A stretch of 64,000 nt of DNA from assembly GCF_013364155.1 (NCBI RefSeq), contig NZ_CP054916.1, positions 4,275,001 to 4,339,000 of the forward strand, read 5' to 3'. A program made the translations under genes and the position numbers. Origin of the DNA: Streptomyces sp. NA02950. GTDB taxonomy: Bacteria > Actinomycetota > Actinomycetes > Streptomycetales > Streptomycetaceae. Within the stretch, counting starts at the first letter, position 1. Each line of letters starts with the position of its first letter. A model generated the notes under the pieces. That model did not search any database and was not told the DNA's origin. It was given only the letters and a program-made list of their open reading frames with translations. This document shows, in pieces, positions 22,974 through 41,634 of the stretch.

Positions 22974-24080
22974 TTACTGCATGTCGACCATGCCCCATGC
23001 CACAGCCATGGGCGAACCCGCCCAGCCCTCCACCGTCTTCCAGATGGACGCAATGCCGCGCTCTTCGAGGTAAGGGGCGTACACCTCGATGTCCTCGGTG
23101 AAGAGCCCCAGCAGCTGCGGCTCGGGGTGCCCCCGCTGGGCGTAGAGGAAATGGCTGTACTCAAAGAGCTGACTCAGCGCTTCACGCACGGCCCTGGTGG
23201 GGTTGCCACGCTTGACGGTCTTGGCCTCCACCAGCCACTCCGTACCGTCTCGCCGGAGCACGAGGTCCTTGGGATGCATCTGGTCAGTGATCGGAACGAA
23301 CCCTCGCGGCTCGATGTATCGACCGAAGCCATCGATCAGGTTCTCGTGGTCCCGCCTGACCGTGATCGTGCGCTGAGCGATGTGCGCTACATAGTCGCTG
23401 CCGTCCTTGGGACGAAAGCCGTCGAGTCCCTTGAACTCAGCTTGGGGATCGGAGACAAAGCCGGTCGTACGAAGCCCTTCCGACGTCTCCTCGTCCTTGA
23501 GCAACTTCTCTACGGAGGCAGCGTGCTGAAGGAGTTCGGCCATGTGCCACAGGTCCTCACGGAGACTGGTCTCCGTCGGCATGGCGGCCGTGCTGTAGGT
23601 CCGAGCCGCCACACTTCCCGCTTCATAGGACAGCGCCCGCGATAGCTTGCACCTGAACTCGGGGCGGTCTTTCCATCCTGCTCTCAGGCTCTTCGGGAGC
23701 CCCTCCTGCAATGTCTTGGCCCTGCTCAGCAGATAAGTGCGGCGCTTCTCCCCCTCGCCGAGCTTGCCCTTGAGTGACGTCACGCCCTGCTGGAGAGTCA
23801 ACGTCACCGTCGCAAGGTCGGCCGCAAAGATGTAGGCAAGGTAGAGCCCCTGCTTCGGGTCCCGGGTGATGGCTGGGTCATAGACGCCGATCCAGGGTGT
23901 CCGGCTGGCGCCGCCGCTTCCTCCATTGCCTTCCGCCTCGAAGCCTCCTGGCAGGAGAGGCGCCCACTCAGCCCTTGCGGCACGCAGCAGATCTTGCGCA
24001 CGCACCCCTGATGACGTCCCCTTCCCTGCGTCGTAGGTGAGGGCAATCTCAAGGAGCAGACCACGTATGTCCGTGCTCAA
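22974..24080 (-). CDS. McrB-N-like domain fused to PD-(D/E)XK nuclease (putative restriction enzyme)
   Basis: A 368-residue protein. Residues about 5-105 look like the N-terminal DNA-recognition domain of McrB (DUF3578 type): a PWIGVYDPAITRDPKQGLYL block, then YIFAADLATVTLTLQQGVT. The C-terminal 130 residues contain DLVLRRDGTEWLVEAKTV, a PD-(D/E)XK core (Asp, then E-A-K), followed by a helix with SQLFEYSHFL. There is no AAA+ GTPase, so this is not a complete McrB. In known enzymes the N-terminal domain reads modified cytosine context. TTG start (24080); the family's first helix begins within ten residues, supporting it. Divergent from the helicase gene 152 bp away. Confidence 0.72.
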   Translation of the reverse strand: MSTDIRGLLLEIALTYDAGKGTSSGVRAQDLLRAARAEWAPLLPGGFEAEGNGGSGGASRTPWIGVYDPAITRDPKQGLYLAYIFAADLATVTLTLQQGVTSLKGKLGEGEKRRTYLLSRAKTLQEGLPKSLRAGWKDRPEFRCKLSRALSYEAGSVAARTYSTAAMPTETSLREDLWHMAELLQHAASVEKLLKDEETSEGLRTTGFVSDPQAEFKGLDGFRPKDGSDYVAHIAQRTITVRRDHENLIDGFGRYIEPRGFVPITDQMHPKDLVLRRDGTEWLVEAKTVKRGNPTRAVREALSQLFEYSHFLYAQRGHPEPQLLGLFTEDIEVYAPYLEERGIASIWKTVEGWAGSPMAVAWGMVDMQ

Positions 24081-24232
24081 GAACTATGCATGAACGGTCG
24101 GACAGCAACTTAATTGATCACATACGGTCATGGTGTGTGTACACCCGACAGGGTCCCCGATCGATCTACCTGAGGACTGTCGGACACCGCTGATAGAACG
24201 ACACATGAATGAGTGAAACGAGGAGTTGCTGC
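24081..24232. promoter_or_regulatory. Divergent promoter region of the nuclease and helicase genes
   Basis: 152 bp of AT-richer DNA shared by the two divergent island genes. On the plus strand TTGATC (24114-24119) lies about 18 bp before TGTACA, an approximate promoter. GACAGGGTCC and GGACTGTC form a partial inverted repeat. On the minus strand CATAGT stands just before the TTG, too close for an ordinary leader. Joint control is likely but not shown. Confidence 0.35.
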
Positions 24233-27200
24233 ATGGCCGATGCCTTCAAAGACCCCGCAAGTCCCGTACCGGGCCTCTATGAGCGTCTCATCACCGATCG
24301 CATCGAGCACCAACTCAAGGCGTTAGATCCCGACGGCTGGAAGATCATCGAGCAAGGGGTCGGCGAGCACTCCTCGCCCCATGTGTTGGCTCGACACATC
24401 GCAGATACCGTCCAGCAGGTCTTCACGACCCTGCCGCACGATGAGCAACTCATCGCTGCGAACCGCATCCTCGAATCGATCAGCACCTCCGACGGAGCCA
24501 AGCAGTGGGTTGACCTCATCGCGGACGGACCGCGGCAGTTGATCGCCATCGCCGCACAAGAGGCACCCGGCGTCTACAGCGTGCGCCCTGCAACGCCGCT
24601 CTCCGAGACGGCCCTCATCACCAACTCCCCCGAAGATCCCAACCTCGGCTTTGAGCTGCGGGCCGAGCTGGCGACCGCCGACCGCGTGGATCTGCTGTGC
24701 GCGTTTGTGAAATGGCATGGCCTCCGCGTTCTGGAAGAGTCACTCAAAGCCGCTCGCGATCGAGGGGTGCCGATCCGCGTCATCACCACCACCTACATCG
24801 GGGCGACCGAGCGTCGTGCCCTGGATCGGCTGGTCAGGGAGTTCCATGCCGAGGTCAAGGTCAACTACGAGGTGCGGTCCACGCGTCTCCATGCGAAGGC
24901 ATGGCTCTTCCGTCGCAACAGCGGCTATGACACCGCATACGTGGGGAGTTCTAACCTTTCGAAGGCTGCTCTTCTCGATGGCTTGGAATGGAACGTACGA
25001 CTCTCCTCGATAGCGACTCCCGCCGTGATGAAGAAGTTTGAGGCAACGTTTGATTCCTACTGGAGCGACCCCACCTTTGAAACGTATGCCCCAGATAGCG
25101 ACGGCGCCCGGCTTCTCGAGGCCCTCTCACTAGCTAGCGGGAAACGGCAGACCGACACCCAGACCATCAGCCTCGCCGGTCTTGAGGTGCGTCCATATCC
25201 TCACCAAGAAGATATGCTCGAACGGCTTGCCATCGAGCGTGAGATCCACGACCGTCACCGTAACTTGCTCGTCGCCGCGACCGGCACCGGCAAGACGGTC
25301 ATGGCAGCCCTTGACTACAAGTCTCTCGTTAGGGCAAACCGAGGTCGGCGCCCAAGCCTTCTTTTCGTGGCCCATCGACAGGAGATACTCGAGCAGTCAC
25401 TGCGCACCTACCAGCATGTGCTGAACGATGCGAATTTCGGTGAGCTTATGGTGGGCGGCGAAGTCCCCGAGGACTGGACACATGTCTTCGCTAGCGTCCA
25501 ATCCCTCAATGCCCACTCCCCAGAGCGTTTCGCTCCTGATCAATTCGATGTTGTGGTCATTGACGAGTTTCATCACGGCGTCTCACCGACCTATCGACGC
25601 ATCATTGACCATTTTGAACCGAACGAACTCCTCGGCCTGACGGCCATACCCGAGCGCATGGACGGAAAAAACGTTCAGGATGAGTTCTTCGACGGCCATA
25701 TCGCTGCGGAGATGCGACTCTGGGAGGCATTGGAGAATGAACTCCTAAGCCCCTTTCACTACTTCGGGATTGCCGACAACACCGACCTCGATGGACTCAC
25801 CTGGAAGCAGGGGTCCTACGTCATGAGCGAGCTCAACCAGCTCTACACGGGGAACCACGCCCGCGCCCGGCTCATCGTGAAGGCCGTGGAAGAGAAGGTG
25901 ACAGACCCAGGCGCCATGCAGGCACTCGGCTTCTGCGTCTCCGTAGCACACGCCCGCTTCATGGCGGACTTCTTCCGTCAGGCCGGGATCAAAGCCGAAG
26001 CCCTCGATGGATCCTCCTCCGCCACAGAGCGCGCCCAGGCCCTTGCAGAACTCCGCGATGGGCGGGTGCAGATCCTCTTTTCCGTTGACCTCTTCAACGA
26101 GGGCCTTGACATCCCCGACGTGGACACGCTCCTCTTGCTGCGGCCCACGTCTAGTGCCACCGTATTCCTCCAGCAACTTGGACGTGGCCTACGCCGCACA
26201 CCGGACAAGGCCGTGCTCACGGTCCTTGACTTCATCGGCCAACACCGCAAGGAATTCCGCTTCGAGGAGCAGTTCCGCGCGCTGACCAACTTCACGCGCA
26301 ACCGGCTTACCGAGAATATGGAGCACGACTTCCCTCAGCTCCCCTCTGGCTGCCAGATCATCCTGGACCGCAAATCGAAGCGGCGGATCTTGGACAACAT
26401 CAGGAGCCAGATCAACGTCAACGTACGGCAGTTGACCCAAGAGGTCGCTGCCTACGCCGAGCCGTGTCTTGATGCATATCTGCGAGAGAGCCGCCGAGAG
26501 TTGAAGGAGCTCTATCGTGCCAATAACTCATGGACCCGCCTCCTGAGGAGGGCCAGCCTCCTCACCGAGGAGGCACCCGAGGGCGAGGAGCAGCTCCTCA
26601 AGCGCGTGTCAGCCTTTCTCCACGTGGACGACAAACAGCGGGTACAGGCGTATCAACGCATGCTGGCCGACAATGCACCCGACTACGCCGAACTCAACGC
26701 AACGGATCAAGCGTACGCACGTATGCTCTTCTTCTCCGTCTGGCCTCTCGGTGGGGGCTTCTCCAGCTACGCGGATGGATTTGATTCCTTGCGCAAGCAG
26801 AGCGCATTCCGAAACGAGCTGCGGCAAGTTCTCGCCTACAACGCGGAACACACCGACCACTACCCCATTCCGCTCCTCGGCGAGCACAGTGGTGTCCCGC
26901 TGACCATCCACGCCTCGTACAGCCGAGAAGAGATCCTGCCCGCCCTTCGCCAGGCAGACGTCAACGGCTTCCTGCCGGGACACTTTCGTGAAGGGGTGAA
27001 GTGGTGTGAGGACATGCAAACCGATGCGCTGCTGATCACCCTGGAGAAGGACAACAAGGACTTCTCACCGCAGACCCGCTACAAGGACTACGCCATGAGC
27101 CCGGTCCGGTTCCACTGGGAGTCACAGAACCAGACGTCGGAAGCGTCCTCCACTGGACAGCGTTATCAGCATCACCAGGAGCGCGGATCACATGTCCTGC

Positions 27201-27373
27201 TCTTCGTCCGGCGCTACAAGAAGACAGACATAGGTGGCCCACAGCCATGGATGTTGCTCGGTCCCGCCGAGTACGAGTCTCACGAAGGCAGTAAGCCCAT
27301 GGGGATCGTCTGGCGGCTACAGCATGAACTGCCCGCCGATGTCTGGACCTACTCGGCCATCGCAGCGGGGTAG
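24233..27373 (+). CDS. PLD-nuclease / SF2 helicase / DUF3427 protein
   Basis: A 1,046-residue protein in three parts. Residues about 130-290 are a phospholipase-D-type nuclease half-site (RLHAKAWLF, H220 and K222, then VGSSNLSKAAL). Residues about 320-700 are an SF2 helicase: AATGTGKTVMAALDY (Walker A, about 349), VVIDEFHHG (DEXH, about 444), TAIPER, and motif VI FLQQLGRGLRRT. The last 300 residues match DUF3427. This architecture suggests ATP-driven translocation on DNA coupled to cleavage, as in restriction or anti-phage systems. GAGGAG 7 nt before the ATG at 24233 sets the start; an ATG eight codons earlier has no ribosome site. Lower G+C than flanking core genes. Confidence 0.85.
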   Translation: MADAFKDPASPVPGLYERLITDRIEHQLKALDPDGWKIIEQGVGEHSSPHVLARHIADTVQQVFTTLPHDEQLIAANRILESISTSDGAKQWVDLIADGPRQLIAIAAQEAPGVYSVRPATPLSETALITNSPEDPNLGFELRAELATADRVDLLCAFVKWHGLRVLEESLKAARDRGVPIRVITTTYIGATERRALDRLVREFHAEVKVNYEVRSTRLHAKAWLFRRNSGYDTAYVGSSNLSKAALLDGLEWNVRLSSIATPAVMKKFEATFDSYWSDPTFETYAPDSDGARLLEALSLASGKRQTDTQTISLAGLEVRPYPHQEDMLERLAIEREIHDRHRNLLVAATGTGKTVMAALDYKSLVRANRGRRPSLLFVAHRQEILEQSLRTYQHVLNDANFGELMVGGEVPEDWTHVFASVQSLNAHSPERFAPDQFDVVVIDEFHHGVSPTYRRIIDHFEPNELLGLTAIPERMDGKNVQDEFFDGHIAAEMRLWEALENELLSPFHYFGIADNTDLDGLTWKQGSYVMSELNQLYTGNHARARLIVKAVEEKVTDPGAMQALGFCVSVAHARFMADFFRQAGIKAEALDGSSSATERAQALAELRDGRVQILFSVDLFNEGLDIPDVDTLLLLRPTSSATVFLQQLGRGLRRTPDKAVLTVLDFIGQHRKEFRFEEQFRALTNFTRNRLTENMEHDFPQLPSGCQIILDRKSKRRILDNIRSQINVNVRQLTQEVAAYAEPCLDAYLRESRRELKELYRANNSWTRLLRRASLLTEEAPEGEEQLLKRVSAFLHVDDKQRVQAYQRMLADNAPDYAELNATDQAYARMLFFSVWPLGGGFSSYADGFDSLRKQSAFRNELRQVLAYNAEHTDHYPIPLLGEHSGVPLTIHASYSREEILPALRQADVNGFLPGHFREGVKWCEDMQTDALLITLEKDNKDFSPQTRYKDYAMSPVRFHWESQNQTSEASSTGQRYQHHQERGSHVLLFVRRYKKTDIGGPQPWMLLGPAEYESHEGSKPMGIVWRLQHELPADVWTYSAIAAG

Positions 27374-27386
27374 CCTCCCCGTTCGC

Positions 27387-28034
27387 TCAACCGACCGCAT
27401 TGCCCCGTGACTCGAAATACATCTGCGCTCGGTCCAATGCGGTGTCAGGGTCCTGCCCATGCGCATGGAACCAGTGGAGGAGGTCCGCGATGAGAGTGAT
27501 CGCGGCCTCCTCGGCCCCTACCAGCTCCCTTCGCGTCGCTGCCGCACTGGCGCCTGCCTGGTCGTAGAGCGTAAGTACCGCATCTGCACGGTGGACTTGA
27601 GGGCTAGCGACATGGCCATCTGTGTGGCTGAGATCAGTGCCGAGCTCGCACCAGGTTGTCTTACCGGTCTCGGTCGGGATCACGCCCCATCGATCCGATA
27701 CCGCTGTGACCAAGGTCAGCCCCCGACCGGACTCGGCTGTCTTAGGCACGTTCAGCAACGTGGGCAACGCACTCCTGTCGGGGTCGTGAACCTCAATACG
27801 CAGGTCAGTGCCGTTCATGACAAGAGCCAGGGTCGTCGGAGTGCCGACACCTACGTGCCTGATGACGTTGGCGACGAGTTCGGTCACGCAGATCTGTGCC
27901 GCACCGACGAGATCAGAAAGCCCCCATAACTTCAGGTGTGTTCGCACGATCCGTCGCAGTGCAGCTACTTCACCGGGTACCGCGAGGAAGGGAAGGTCCC
28001 ACGCCTTCCGCGACATGCACCGTTTGATCATCAT
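27387..28034 (-). CDS. ATP-binding protein, GHKL anti-sigma-like
   Basis: A 215-residue protein. The first 130 residues are a single GHKL ATPase domain of the RsbW/HATPase_c_2 type: VTELVANVIRHVG (N-box), VHDPDRSALP (D-box), ESGRGLTLVTAVSDRWG (G-boxes). The last 65 residues form a less conserved helical extension. Such genes accompany XRE(DUF5753) and DUF397 genes in many Streptomyces loci (whiJ/abaA type) and modulate development or secondary metabolism. The stop lies 13 bp from the convergent helicase stop. ATG at 28034 with AGGGG 9 nt upstream; ATGs at 28031 and 28016 are alternatives. Confidence 0.87.
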   Translation of the reverse strand: MMIKRCMSRKAWDLPFLAVPGEVAALRRIVRTHLKLWGLSDLVGAAQICVTELVANVIRHVGVGTPTTLALVMNGTDLRIEVHDPDRSALPTLLNVPKTAESGRGLTLVTAVSDRWGVIPTETGKTTWCELGTDLSHTDGHVASPQVHRADAVLTLYDQAGASAAATRRELVGAEEAAITLIADLLHWFHAHGQDPDTALDRAQMYFESRGNAVG

Positions 28035-28158
28035 GCGCGTCAGCCCCTTGCTGTTCGACCATCACTCGATCACCGATTGCAATGAGTCGATGGCGCTTAG
28101 TTACTCCATGTGAAAGCATGGCAGCGCACATCCCCTCGTGCAATGTGCATATACGGAT

Positions 28159-28174
28159 TCGCTCGATCGAGTGA
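28159..28174. promoter_or_regulatory. Palindrome in the divergent ATPase/XRE intergenic region
   Basis: TCGCTCGATCGAGTGA contains the perfect palindrome CTCGATCGAG extended by two more matches after one mismatch per side. It lies 60 bp upstream of the XRE gene. It is a plausible XRE operator by position only. Confidence 0.3.
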
Positions 28175-28233
28175 CTGACGTGGGCCCAGCCGCCCGGCAA
28201 GACTGAACGACCCTGACAACCCGAGGAGTTCGC

Positions 28234-29067
28234 GTGTCTGGATCACCCACCGCTCGACGACGCCGCCTGGCGATCGAGCTCAAGAAACTCCGGGAGGAGC
28301 ATCGGCTCACGTGCAATCAAGTGGGCAAGGCACTGGACTGGAGTGGTTCGAAGGTCAACCGCCTCGAGACCGGTCAGGGTCGTGTACAGCCATCGGACGT
28401 GGATGCACTCTGTCGCTTCTACGGAACGTCGGATGAACTTCGCGAACTCCTCAAGGACCTCGCCAAGCAATCGAAGATGCGCGGTTGGTGGCATGCTTAT
28501 GGCAATGCCATCCCCGGCTGGTTCTCGGTCTACGTAGGGCTCGAACAGGCAGCCTCGGGGCTACGAACGTACGAGTGTGAGTTCGTCCCCGGTCTGCTTC
28601 AAACGGTTGACTACGCTCGTGAACTCCACCTCGCCACGCCTCCTTCAGATGCAGACGAGGTTGAGCGCTTGATCGGCGTACGGCTGGAGCGGCAAGAATT
28701 GCTCACCAGCACCACACCGCCCGACCTGTGGGCCATCGTGCACGAAAGTGTGCTGCGACATGTGATCGGCAGCCCGAAGGTCATGCGCGGCCAGTTCGAG
28801 CTCCTCCTGAAGATGGGGGAGCTGAAGAACATCACCATCCAGGTGCTGCCGTTCGACGCTGGAAGCTACCCCGCTGCCGGAGCCTTCACCATCTTGGAGT
28901 TCCCGGAGCAGGGCGATCCCGATGTCGTGTACCGCGATGGCTTGACGGACGCTGTGTATCTGGAGTGTCCGGAAGACATTGCTCGATACACTAAGGCATT
29001 TGACAACCTCCGTGCCATGTCCTTGAGTCCTCAGCGATCGGCCGATCTGATCAGACAGGCGAAGTAG
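28234..29067 (+). CDS. XRE-family HTH regulator with DUF5753 domain
   Basis: A 277-residue protein. Residues about 10-70 are an XRE helix-turn-helix (LKKLREEHRLTCNQVGKALDWSGSKVNRLE, read with the following TGQGRV). The rest is DUF5753: YECEFVPGLLQTVDYAREL, VRLERQELL, IHES-like VHESVLRH and a C-terminal PEQGDPDVVY. GAGGAG 5 nt before the GTG fixes the start. It is followed 9 nt later by a DUF397 gene, the usual pair; together they resemble the WhiJ-type regulatory modules of Streptomyces. Confidence 0.93.
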   Translation: MSGSPTARRRRLAIELKKLREEHRLTCNQVGKALDWSGSKVNRLETGQGRVQPSDVDALCRFYGTSDELRELLKDLAKQSKMRGWWHAYGNAIPGWFSVYVGLEQAASGLRTYECEFVPGLLQTVDYARELHLATPPSDADEVERLIGVRLERQELLTSTTPPDLWAIVHESVLRHVIGSPKVMRGQFELLLKMGELKNITIQVLPFDAGSYPAAGAFTILEFPEQGDPDVVYRDGLTDAVYLECPEDIARYTKAFDNLRAMSLSPQRSADLIRQAK

Positions 29068-29076
29068 GGGCTAACG

Positions 29077-29277
29077 ATGACTGAGATACCACCTCTCATG
29101 TGGCACAAGAGCAGCTATAGCAATGGCGCAGGAGGCAACTGCGTAGAGTCTGCGCGTCATGGGGGCGACCGGACCGCTGTGCGCGACTCCAAAGACCCTG
29201 GCGGACCCGTGCTGGCGTTTTCCGATCGTGCCTGGGGGGACTTCATTGCGGCCGTGCGGGGCCGGCGGTTGGGCTGA
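29077..29277 (+). CDS. DUF397 domain protein
   Basis: A 66-residue DUF397 protein with the classical motifs WHKSSYSNGAGGNCVE, VRDSKDPGGPVLAF and a closing WGDFIAAVR. It begins 9 nt after the XRE stop with GGGG upstream of the ATG, so it is co-transcribed. DUF397 proteins act as small partners or antagonists of the adjacent XRE regulator; toxin-antitoxin-like behaviour has been proposed for some pairs. Confidence 0.94.
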   Translation: MTEIPPLMWHKSSYSNGAGGNCVESARHGGDRTAVRDSKDPGGPVLAFSDRAWGDFIAAVRGRRLG

Positions 29278-39384: not shown

Positions 39385-41634
39385 TCAGCCGTTGCGCTTC
39401 CAGCGCGGCTTGTCGGCACGGCGGTCGAAGGAGCGGTCGTGCGACCGGCCGCCGGTGCCGCCGCCGCGGTGGTCGTCACGGCGGGCCGGGCGCTCGTCGC
39501 GGCGGTCCCGGTTGAACGGACGGTCCCCGCCGCGGTGGGCGTGGTCGCGGCGCTCGAAGGGACGTCCCGGACGGTCGTCGCGGCGGTCGTCGCGGCGGTT
39601 GAAGCCGCCCCGGTCGTCACGGCGCTCGATGGAACGGCCACCGCGGTCGTCGCGCCGGTTGAAGCCACCACGGTCGTCACGGCGCTCCCGGCCGAACGGA
39701 CGCTCGTCGCGCCGGTCGCGGTTGAAGCCGCCCCGGTCGTCACGGCGCTCGAAGGAACGGCCGCCACGGTCGTCACGGCGGTCGTCACGGCGCTCCCGGC
39801 CGAAGCCACGGTCGCCCCGGTCGTCGCGCCGGTTGAAGCCACCGCGGTCGTCCCGGCGGTTGAAGCCACCACGGTCGTCACGGCGCTCCCGGCCGAAGCC
39901 ACGGTCGCCGTCCCGGCGGTCCCGGCGGTCGAAGTTGCCCCGCTCGTCACGGCGGTCGTCACGGCGGTCGTACGAGGAGCGGCGCGACGCGTCGTCGGCA
40001 CCCGCGGCCTCGGCGGCGGCGACGGACGCGGGCTCGGCCGTACGCTGCGCCGGAACCGCCGCGGTGGACTCCGCGGCCCCTCCGGCCGTCTGCGCCGCCT
40101 CAGTCGGGGCACCGGCCTCGGCCGTCTCGGCACCGGTCGCCGTCGCGGCCGCGGAGGCCGTGGGGACGACGGTCTCGCCGCGCTCGCGCGCCGCCCGCGC
40201 GGCCAGCCGGTCGGCGTCCTCGCGCAGCTCGGCCGCCCGCCGCTGGACCCGCTCCAGCTGCCGGGTGAGGTCCTGGACCTCACGCTCGGCCTGCTTGGCG
40301 GAGTTCGCGGCCGCCTCGGCCTGTACCTCGGTGAGCGAGCGGGCACCGGTGATCCGGGCCACGTCCTCGTCGAAGGCGCCCGCCCCGCCCACGATGTGGC
40401 GGGAGGCGTCCACGCCCGCGTCCTCCATCAGCCGGAAGATCTGGCGGCGCTGGTGCGGCAGGGCGAGCGACACGACCGTGCCGCTCTGGCCCGCGCGGGC
40501 CGTACGGCCGGAGCGGTGCAGATAGTCCTTGTGGTCACCGGCCGGGTCCACGTTCAGCACCAGGTCGATGCCGTCCACGTGGATGCCCCGTGCGGCGACG
40601 TCCGTCGCGACGAGGACGTTGACGTACCCGTCCTTGAAGTCGGCCAGGGTGCGGGTCCGGGCGCCCTGCGTCATACCGCCGTGCAGCGCGTCGGCCCGTA
40701 CGCCCGCGTCGCAGAGCTGCTCGGCGACGCGGTCGGCGCCCAGCTGGGTCCGGACGAAGATGATGGTGCGGCCCTTGCGCGCGGCGATGGCGGCGGTGAC
40801 CGGCGCCTTGTCCTTCGGCTTCACCACGAGGACGTGGTGGGTCATGGTGGTCACCGCGCCCTGCGCCGCGTCGACCTCGTGGGTGATCGGGTTGACCAGG
40901 TAGCGCTTGACCAGCGTGTCGATCTCGTTCTCGAGCGTCGCGGAGAACAGCAGCCGCTGGCCACCGGCCGGCACCAGGTCGAGGATCTCGGTGACCTCGG
41001 GCAGGAAGCCCATGTCGGCCATCTGGTCGGCCTCGTCGAGGACCGCGACCTGGACCTTGTCGAGGGAGGCGGCGCCGCGGTCGATAATGTCGCGCAGCCG
41101 GCCCGGGGTGGCGACGAGGATGTCGACACCGCGCTCCAGCGCGGAGATCTGATTGCCCATCGAGGTACCGCCGCAGACGACCTTGAGCCGGAGGCCGAGA
41201 ACATCGCCGTACGGCTGGAGCGCGTCGCTCACCTGCATCGCGAGCTCGCGGGTGGGGGTGAGGATCAGACCGCGGGGACGCTTCTTCTCGGTGTGGCCGC
41301 CGGCCAGCGTGGTCAGCAGCGGAAGGCCGAAGGAGAGGGTCTTGCCGGAGCCGGTACGGCCGCGGCCGAGGATGTCGCTTCCGGCCATGGCGTCGGGGAT
41401 GGTCGCGGCCTGGATCGGGAAGGGCGTGGTCACGCCGTTCTGCGCCAGCTTGCGGACGATCTGCTCGGGGAGCCCGAGGTCGGCGAAGGTGATCTCGGGG
41501 GTCTTCTGGTCCTGCGGCTGGTCGAGCTGGTCCTGCTGGTCGAGCTGGTCCTGCTGGTCCTGCTGCGCCCGGACGGGCTGCTCGGACTGCTCGTCGTGGG
41601 CAGGCATGACGGCGTGATCAGTGGAAACGGACAT
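39385..41634 (-). CDS. DEAD/DEAH-box ATP-dependent RNA helicase with RDDRGG-rich tail
   Basis: A 749-residue helicase. Q motif FADLGLPEQIVRKL, Walker A RGRTGSGKT, PTRELA, VATPGRL, DEAD-type VLDEADQM, SAT, then the C-terminal helicase motifs (ATDVAARGIHVDGI, HRSGRTARAGQ). A coiled region (about 410-500) and an Ala-rich linker lead to a 200-residue tail of RDDRGGFNR-type repeats, typical of RNA-binding cold-shock helicases and degradosome partners. The N-terminus has a Gln/Asp repeat (DQQDQLDQQDQLDQ). ATG at 41634; GGAAGG is rather far upstream. Confidence 0.93.
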   Translation of the reverse strand: MSVSTDHAVMPAHDEQSEQPVRAQQDQQDQLDQQDQLDQPQDQKTPEITFADLGLPEQIVRKLAQNGVTTPFPIQAATIPDAMAGSDILGRGRTGSGKTLSFGLPLLTTLAGGHTEKKRPRGLILTPTRELAMQVSDALQPYGDVLGLRLKVVCGGTSMGNQISALERGVDILVATPGRLRDIIDRGAASLDKVQVAVLDEADQMADMGFLPEVTEILDLVPAGGQRLLFSATLENEIDTLVKRYLVNPITHEVDAAQGAVTTMTHHVLVVKPKDKAPVTAAIAARKGRTIIFVRTQLGADRVAEQLCDAGVRADALHGGMTQGARTRTLADFKDGYVNVLVATDVAARGIHVDGIDLVLNVDPAGDHKDYLHRSGRTARAGQSGTVVSLALPHQRRQIFRLMEDAGVDASRHIVGGAGAFDEDVARITGARSLTEVQAEAAANSAKQAEREVQDLTRQLERVQRRAAELREDADRLAARAARERGETVVPTASAAATATGAETAEAGAPTEAAQTAGGAAESTAAVPAQRTAEPASVAAAEAAGADDASRRSSYDRRDDRRDERGNFDRRDRRDGDRGFGRERRDDRGGFNRRDDRGGFNRRDDRGDRGFGRERRDDRRDDRGGRSFERRDDRGGFNRDRRDERPFGRERRDDRGGFNRRDDRGGRSIERRDDRGGFNRRDDRRDDRPGRPFERRDHAHRGGDRPFNRDRRDERPARRDDHRGGGTGGRSHDRSFDRRADKPRWKRNG
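39420..39985. repeat. Degenerate repeats encoding the RDDRGG-rich helicase tail
   Basis: Recurrent short blocks such as CGGTCGTCACGGCG and GGTTGAAGCC tile this stretch in irregular order. On the coding strand they give about a dozen RDDRGG(F/G)-like units. The array is in frame and probably varies in length between strains. Confidence 0.7.

What the first reader, a model, noticed from the sequence alone, without database searches (positions are those of the whole stretch)
22974..27373. Divergent nuclease/helicase pair: candidate undescribed restriction or anti-phage system
A McrB-N/PD-(D/E)XK protein and a PLD/SF2-helicase/DUF3427 protein share a 152-bp divergent promoter region in an island of lower G+C. 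Seen: EAK nuclease motif, HxK PLD motif, Walker A and DEXH boxes. Known: type IV and helicase-linked systems often pair a modified-DNA sensor with a translocase. Inference: one protein senses modified or foreign DNA and the other moves and cuts. I cannot match the pair to a named defence system.
Basis: partly seen in the sequence, partly recalled or inferred. Interest (0 to 1): 0.78.

Follow-up and report, generated by a model that had tools for sequence, protein, structure and literature searches.

The report
Two paired modified-DNA-cutting enzymes in Streptomyces
Two back-to-back genes in a soil bacterium look like two separate enzymes that destroy chemically marked foreign DNA; one belongs to a known enzyme family and is often missing from related species that can put that mark on their own DNA, which points to its target.

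Summary
In detail: P1 (368 aa, minus strand) and P2 (1054-aa frame, plus strand) diverge across 152 bp in a low-G+C island of a Streptomyces chromosome.

P2 is not unmatched: it is a colinear homologue of SauUSI, a type IV enzyme with its own nuclease (PLD), motor (SF2) and 5-methylcytosine reader (SRA/DUF3427). P1 has a McrB-like DNA-reading domain fused to a PD-(D/E)XK nuclease, without a GTPase.

The pair recurs, always divergent, in 20 of 51 other full-length P1 loci and at two chromosomal sites, but each gene also occurs alone.

New evidence: P2 genomes carry strong cytosine-C5 methyltransferase matches far less often (16 of 84 versus 169 of 211; not corrected for phylogeny); two adenine/N4 methyltransferase controls and P1-only genomes show no significant effect.

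P2 orthologues share a promoter resembling the RecA-NDp/PafBC DNA-damage promoter (44 of 49 loci); the match is imperfect and the window's copy keeps only the TGTCR core, spacing and TA. None of 52 P1 loci has it.

No biochemistry or phage test was possible. Verdict: new variant of a known kind (type IV restriction).

The parts
22974..24080 (-). P1 (P0001): MrcB_N + PD-(D/E)XK protein, 368 aa
   Evidence: ORF; Pfam PF12102 92.8 bits; AF2 model pLDDT 87.4
23505..24074 (-). P1 residues 3-192: fold of the McrB DNA-binding domain (modified-cytosine reader)
22977..23351 (-). P1 residues 244-368: PD-(D/E)XK nuclease domain
23220..23228 (-). EAK motif (residues 285-287)
24081..24232 (.). divergent intergenic region, 152 bp to the ATG at 24233
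   Evidence: 105-188 bp between aligned coding ends in 21 paired loci
24177..24199 (+). CTGTCGGACACCGCTGATAGAAC: conserved P2 promoter, RecA-NDp/PafBC-like -26 element plus extended -10
24233..27373 (+). P2 (P0002): SauUSI-like PLD/SF2/DUF3427 enzyme; the longer frame begins at 24209
24890..24898 (+). P2 PLD catalytic HAK (H228, K230), aligned to HAK of SauUSI
25280..25297 (+). P2 Walker A TGTGKT
25562..25573 (+). P2 DEFH box
26699..27352 (+). P2 DUF3427 (SRA-like target-recognition region)
   Evidence: Pfam PF11907 81.6 bits; family profile aligns to 7clg through its residue 919
27387..28034 (-). HATPase_c_2 gene, recurrent neighbour of P1 and P2
28234..29067 (+). HTH_31/DUF5753 regulator, recurrent neighbour
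29077..29277 (+). DUF397 small protein

Best explanation
The locus encodes two self-contained modification-dependent (type IV-like) restriction enzymes. P2 works like SauUSI: its SRA/DUF3427 region binds a site with modified cytosine, the SF2 motor burns ATP and translocates, and its PLD domain cuts. P1 is a single-chain enzyme in which a McrB-like reader binds a modified base and delivers the attached PD-(D/E)XK nuclease, with no NTP motor. They sit together because both serve the same task with different target spectra, so one locus covers more marks; they are not halves of one machine. P2 expression is probably raised by DNA damage or single-stranded DNA through a RecA-NDp/PafBC-type promoter (about 0.6 for this part); P1 appears to have an ordinary, probably leaderless promoter. 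Shown here by computation: homology, folds, catalytic residues, recurrence of the pair, solo occurrence, scarcity of C5 methyltransferases with P2, the conserved promoter. Inferred: cleavage, target marks, inducibility, benefit against phage or plasmids.
For: P2: 7clg (SauUSI) is the top solved homologue (E 7e-80; family profile E 8e-94 over profile positions 143-1015, i.e. PLD, SF2 and SRA parts in order; Foldseek first); PADLOC mREase_IV 1556 bits. Published SauUSI mechanism: nuclease dimer, translocating ATPase, SRA reader (PMC7913695 passages). P1: reader and nuclease folds, catalytic set invariant. Independence: solo loci in both chromosomal sites. Target: strong C5-MTase match (PF00145, E<=1e-20) in 16 of 84 P2 genomes against 169 of 211 others, OR 0.058, p 1.3e-22 (any match: 44/84 vs 194/211, p 1.8e-13); controls PF01555 39/84 vs 115/211 (p 0.25) and PF02384 79/84 vs 186/211 (p 0.2); P1-only 9/14 vs 176/281. 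In S. rugosispiralis (L108) the P2 slot holds a type II cluster with a cytosine MTase while P1 stays. Promoter: TGTC-N12-TA at a fixed place in 44 of 49 P2 loci, 0.41 expected after shuffling, 1 on the opposite strand; 0 of 52 before P1. The strict motif marks recA and, among 20 scanned frames downstream of other sites of this genome, uracil-glycosylase, MgsA/RarA-type, RuvC, DnaX, UvrD-type and AlkZ-like genes. A Pup-ligase family gene with two WYL matches 2-3 kb downstream, presumed pafA and pafBC, is present.
Against: No activity was tested. P1 and P2 distances correlate across 21 pairs (r 0.87, 0 of 5000 shuffles as high), which a joint machine would also give (though P1 and the flanking SEC-C gene correlate as well, 0.95 in 8 loci). 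The C5-MTase scarcity is not corrected for phylogeny, and 16 P2 genomes, the window's own among them, do carry a strong match. P1 is not clearly free of the effect: all P1 genomes 11/23 vs 174/272 (p 0.18), and within P2-lacking genomes 9/14 vs 160/197 (p 0.16). The promoter departs from the published consensus: the last -10 base is never T in the 44 sites, the window reads TGTCGGAC rather than TGTCRGTG, and only 14 of 49 loci fit the strict form I used. Of the 20 frames downstream of strict sites, 6 (7 with a DEAD helicase) are repair or replication genes, 6 have no Pfam match and the rest are of other kinds. A published initial motif search did not find the mycobacterial PafBC motif conserved in S. 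venezuelae (PMC9380542 passages). hhalign of the P1 family against E. coli McrB gave a probability of only 0.4%. The P2 structure model is poor (pLDDT 64).
Confidence: 0.7

Rival explanations
1. One joint system: P1 senses modified DNA and recruits or licenses P2, which translocates and cuts.
For: Divergent arrangement with short gaps in 21 of 21 pairs, at two chromosomal sites, and correlated P1-P2 distances, r 0.87.
Against: Each protein carries its own reader and nuclease; each occurs alone in most of its genomes (75 of 84 and 14 of 23); co-presence is not above chance; the damage-type motif is on the P2 side only; P2 but not significantly P1 is scarce beside C5 methyltransferases.
Confidence: 0.15
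2. Two unrelated passengers of the same integration hotspots; their pairing means nothing beyond shared sites.
For: P1-only, P2-only and paired loci lie between the same flanks; L108 has a type II R-M cluster in the P2 slot; co-presence p 0.24.
Against: Always divergent and contiguous, 105-188 bp between aligned ends; the paired state persists through three P1 clades with few changes (5 on the tree; the four-group labels need 6, as low in 0 of 200 shuffles, though near-copies favour clustering).
Confidence: 0.25
3. P2 is a repair helicase of the RadD type and the locus serves repair after damage, not restriction; the damage-type promoter would fit.
For: RadD is the best NCBIfam match (99 bits), third in PDB by sequence and second by profile; damage-type promoter.
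Against: RadD similarity covers the helicase only and is far below its curated cut-off of 720 bits; PLD and DUF3427 parts match SauUSI; a repair helicase would not predict scarcity beside C5 methyltransferases.
Confidence: 0.05

Closest known systems
SauUSI (type IV, Staphylococcus; PDB 7clg)
   Same: PLD nuclease, SF2 translocase and SRA/DUF3427 reader in the same order; HAK catalytic motif; one polypeptide.
   Different: About 100 extra residues before the PLD domain, 21-22% identity over the Foldseek alignment, lies beside P1 in some species, damage-type promoter; target sequence unknown.
McrBC (E. coli)
   Same: The P1 reader shares Pfam family PF12102 and the fold of the McrB DNA-binding domain.
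ScoA3I / Sco2863 of S. coelicolor
   Same: A putative helicase with an hsdR-like domain (PMC1934918 passages), listed after the SauUSI-type rows as restricting m5C DNA in vivo (PMC3874153 Table 1).
   Different: Whether it is an orthologue of P2 was not tested; no P1-like partner is named in the passages seen.
RecA-NDp promoters read by PafBC
   Same: TGTCR element, 12 bases from TGTC to a TA-type -10; the strict motif stands at recA and repair genes of this genome.
   Different: The P2 sites have an invariant TG one base before the TA (TGnTA, 44 of 44) and never T at the last -10 base; the window lacks GTG.
BrxR-regulated defence islands
   Same: A WYL-domain regulator controls an island that includes a type IV enzyme, BrxU (PMC9122601 passages).
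   Different: BrxR is a local regulator of its island; here the suspected activator is the host damage regulator PafBC and the enzyme is SauUSI-like.

Membership tests
SauUSI-type type IV enzyme (P2) | PLD nuclease with HxK | tested here: met
   PLDc_2 47.8 bits; H228 and K230 invariant in 40 rows and aligned to HAK of 7clg
SauUSI-type type IV enzyme (P2) | SF2 translocase motifs | tested here: met
   ResIII, Helicase_C; TGTGKT and DEFH in 21 of 21 paired loci; the window has TAI instead of TAT in LTATPERMD
SauUSI-type type IV enzyme (P2) | C-terminal SRA/DUF3427 reader, colinear homology | tested here: met
   DUF3427 81.6 bits; profile match to 7clg over positions 143-1015
SauUSI-type type IV enzyme (P2) | cleavage only of DNA with modified cytosine | not testable with these tools
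   Indirect only: scarcity of C5 methyltransferases in P2 genomes
McrBC (P1) | McrB-type DNA-binding domain | tested here: met
McrBC (P1) | AAA+ GTPase in the same protein | tested here: not met
   Only MrcB_N found in P1 at E<=1, whereas E. coli McrB gives AAA_5 111.7 bits
McrBC (P1) | McrC nuclease partner next door | tested here: not met
   Immediate neighbours in the window are P2, an L,D-transpeptidase-like gene, HATPase, HTH/DUF5753, DUF397; other loci not scanned for McrC
PD-(D/E)XK nuclease (P1) | fold and catalytic D...ExK | tested here: met
Mrr family (P1) | Mrr_cat sequence family | tested here: inconclusive
   No such Pfam match up to E 1; no profile-profile test made
RecA-NDp/PafBC promoter (P2) | tTGTCRgtg - 8 nt - TAnnnT | tested here: inconclusive
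   TGTC-N12-TA in 44 of 49 loci; TGTCRGTG-N8-TANNNY in 14 of 49; last -10 base never T in the 44; the window has GAC for gtg
RecA-NDp/PafBC promoter (P2) | induction by DNA damage through PafBC | not testable with these tools
   A Pup-ligase family gene followed by two WYL matches is present in the genome

The most novel reading that the evidence does not exclude
A two-tier restriction circuit wired to the host damage response: constitutive P1 nicks or cuts DNA bearing one class of modification; the resulting single-stranded DNA activates PafBC, which switches on P2, an ATP-driven shredder of DNA with modified cytosine. WYL-regulated type IV enzymes are known (BrxR and BrxU), but control of one by the host's own damage activator would be new as far as my searches go, and incompatibility of P2 with resident C5 methyltransferases would shape which Streptomyces can carry m5C marks.
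Probability: 0.2. Interest if true: 0.8.

Novelty: new variant of a known kind. Interest (0 to 1): 0.55.

Why it matters
Methylated DNA transforms Streptomyces poorly (stated in the PMC6769113 passages). The locus names two likely causes, gives a genome-scale signature (scarcity beside C5 methyltransferases) that predicts the target mark of an uncharacterised enzyme without biochemistry, and links a SauUSI-like enzyme to a damage-type promoter. I did not find that link in the listings (10 and 8 papers shown of 8,282 and 168) or in the passages of PMC9122601 and PMC7641849; the library holds open-licence papers only. P1 would show that a McrB-type reader can work without a motor.

Tried and rejected
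Sequence searches of PDB with P1 or its 59-row profile found no relative; only the fold comparison did. hhalign of the P1 family against E. coli McrB was weak (probability 0.4%), so no base-pocket residue is claimed. The P2 structure model is poor; P2 claims rest on sequence. A shared bidirectional damage promoter was rejected: the motif was found on the P2 side only (0 of 52 P1 loci). A dedicated role for the neighbouring HATPase and HTH/DUF5753 genes was not adopted: they flank solo and paired loci alike, their distances follow P1 and P2 weakly (r 0.32-0.52 in 11 and 12 loci), and neither hits PADLOC. A common substitute for P1 was not seen: of the genes just upstream of P2 in two P2-only loci, one has no Pfam match (L083) and one is a GntR/TetR regulator (L086); an O-methyltransferase gene in L084 lies on the other side of P2. 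Full-length P1 outside Streptomyces was not found: (two peptide patterns, so misses are possible) gave 55 loci, 51 full-length and all Streptomyces, 4 weak and partial, 8 of 396 genomes had a match and only the window's own was full-length. Co-presence of P1 and P2 as evidence of a joint system: not significant. Recalled first and then checked: that P2 resembled SauUSI and that the promoter resembled RecA-NDp. Recalled and not from a call: the names NucS, RarA, pafBC for the two WYL genes, and the idea of leaderless transcripts.

Papers: all were seen as passages found by term, none read whole: PMC3874153, PMC3009677, PMC7913695, PMC7159879, PMC11090510, PMC1934918, PMC6769113, PMC5087735, PMC11804915, PMC9380542, PMC5656591, PMC8223512, PMC12707154, PMC9122601, PMC7641849.
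Full report
What is there. Two genes diverge across 152 bp at 22974-27373 of a Streptomyces chromosome (own genome handle G000, 9.77 Mb). P1 (minus strand, 368 aa) has a MrcB_N domain; P2 (plus strand, 1054-aa frame, most likely 1046 aa from the ATG at 24233) has PLD, SF2 helicase and DUF3427 domains. The low-G+C stretch of 23-29 kb also holds an HATPase gene, an HTH/DUF5753 regulator and a DUF397 gene.

What P2 is. The best solved relative is SauUSI, 7clg (E 7e-80). A 40-row family profile aligns to it from position 143 to 1015, covering nuclease, motor and SRA parts in order (E 8e-94), and Foldseek ranks it first although the model is poor. PADLOC names it type IV at 1556 bits over about 940 residues. 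The passages I saw of PMC7913695 describe SauUSI as a nuclease dimer with a translocating ATPase and an SRA domain that reads 5-methylcytosine; PMC12707154 passages give the site S5(h)mCNGS. P2 meets the sequence features of that family; its chemistry is untested.

Is the pair real? In 295 genomes of the genus, 23 have full-length P1 (7 more match the MrcB_N domain only) and 84 have P2 (E of 0); 9 have both, 6.5 expected (p 0.24), but in 7 of the 9 the two are adjacent and divergent. A scan of a collection of 84,980 species with two peptide patterns returned 55 loci, 51 of them full-length P1 and all Streptomyces; 20 of these carry P2 divergently, with 105-188 bp between aligned ends over the 21 pairs that include the window. 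Two sites host the module: one by trmB and an aldo-keto reductase gene (the window's), one between a SEC-C gene and a DUF445 gene. Both sites also hold P1 alone and P2 alone; a few solo copies lie elsewhere (for example L074 and L075). On the P1 tree the paired state needs 5 changes over three clades. P1 and P2 distances correlate at 0.87 in 21 pairs, but in the 8 SEC-C loci P1 tracks that flanking gene as well (0.95, against 0.91 for P1-P2), so vertical descent explains much of it.

What each one targets. A modification-dependent enzyme and a methyltransferase making its mark can be lethal together (PMC12707154 passages). Strong C5-cytosine methyltransferase matches (PF00145, E<=1e-20) occur in 16 of 84 P2 genomes and 169 of 211 others (OR 0.058, p 1.3e-22); with weak matches included 44 of 84 and 194 of 211 (p 1.8e-13). 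The same test with adenine/N4 families shows nothing significant (PF01555 39/84 vs 115/211, p 0.25; PF02384 79/84 vs 186/211, p 0.2). P1-only genomes carry strong C5 matches in 9 of 14, against 176 of 281 of all others; among genomes without P2 alone the figures are 9 of 14 and 160 of 197 (p 0.16), and for all P1 genomes 11 of 23 against 174 of 272 (p 0.18), so a weak effect for P1 is not excluded. In S. rugosispiralis the P2 slot is taken by genes matching a type II REase, a cytosine methyltransferase and Vsr, and P1 is kept. This argues that P2 reads m5C and that P1 has another or narrower spectrum. The species are related, the test is not phylogenetically corrected, and 16 genomes, the window's included, are exceptions.

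How P2 is switched on. Upstream of P2, CTGTC and TGnTA(G/C)AAC stand at fixed spacing while most of the rest of the intergenic region diverges. TGTC-N12-TA is found at this place in 44 of 49 P2 loci (22 of 24 paired, 22 of 25 solo), against 0.41 after shuffling and 1 on the opposite strand; the four positions after TGTC, left free in the search, read R (40 of 44), G (37), T (25), G (31). That resembles the published RecA-NDp element tTGTCRgtg-8 nt-TannnT (PMC5656591 passages), linked to PafBC (PMC8223512 passages) and found upstream of the UV-inducible SCO6735 in S. coelicolor (PMC5087735 passages). In the window's genome the pattern TGTCRGTG-N8-TANNNY occurs 44 times against 3 for the reversed pattern. 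One site precedes recA. Of 20 other downstream frames scanned, six match repair or replication families (uracil glycosylase, MgsA/RarA-type ATPase, RuvC, DnaX, UvrD-type helicase, AlkZ-like glycosylase), one is a DEAD helicase, six have no match and seven are of other kinds, such as ABC transporters, a sugar kinase and an amine oxidase. A Pup-ligase family gene with two WYL matches 2-3 kb downstream, presumed pafA and pafBC, is present. Against: the last -10 base is never T in the 44 P2 sites, the window's own site is TGTCGGAC, only 14 of 49 loci fit the strict pattern, and PMC9380542 reports that an initial search did not find the mycobacterial motif conserved in S. venezuelae. I rate the promoter reading at about 0.6. 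P1 has no such motif in 52 loci; by eye many carry a TA-type -10 about 7 bases before the start, suggesting a leaderless transcript.

Verdict. The split sensor/motor model is not supported; two complete modification-dependent enzymes at a shared site fits better. P2 is a new member of the SauUSI type; P1 is a GTPase-free McrB-reader nuclease; their combination with a damage-type promoter is a new variant of a known kind.

Noticed in passing
window 24072-24074 (minus strand): The ATG that starts P1 in close relatives (TTGAGCATGGAC in L097) is ACG in the window; an in-frame TTG lies two codons upstream, so P1 translation may be weak here.
   Followed up: partly
window P2 residue 480: Helicase motif III reads LTAIPERMD; it is LTATPERMD in 17 of the 20 paired relatives (my pattern was not found in the other 3). 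The window's genome is one of 16 P2 genomes with a strong C5-methyltransferase match, the best one on its second contig.
   Followed up: partly
L108:3322-7161: In S. rugosispiralis genes matching a type II REase, a cytosine methyltransferase and Vsr occupy the slot of P2 next to P1.
   Followed up: yes
window 27387-29277: HATPase_c_2 and HTH/DUF5753 genes accompany many P1-only, P2-only and paired loci at both chromosomal sites; role unknown.
   Followed up: partly
L173 (G000:C1:2120243): Another HTH/DUF5753 regulator of this genome has a strict RecA-NDp motif about 60 bp upstream of its start.
   Followed up: no
G006, G029, G057, G137, G143, G275: Partial or split P2 copies in several genomes may be remnants of lost enzymes or assembly breaks.
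   Followed up: no
window 40423-40728 (minus strand): A weak P2 helicase-like match (29% over 103 residues) inside another gene frame.
   Followed up: no
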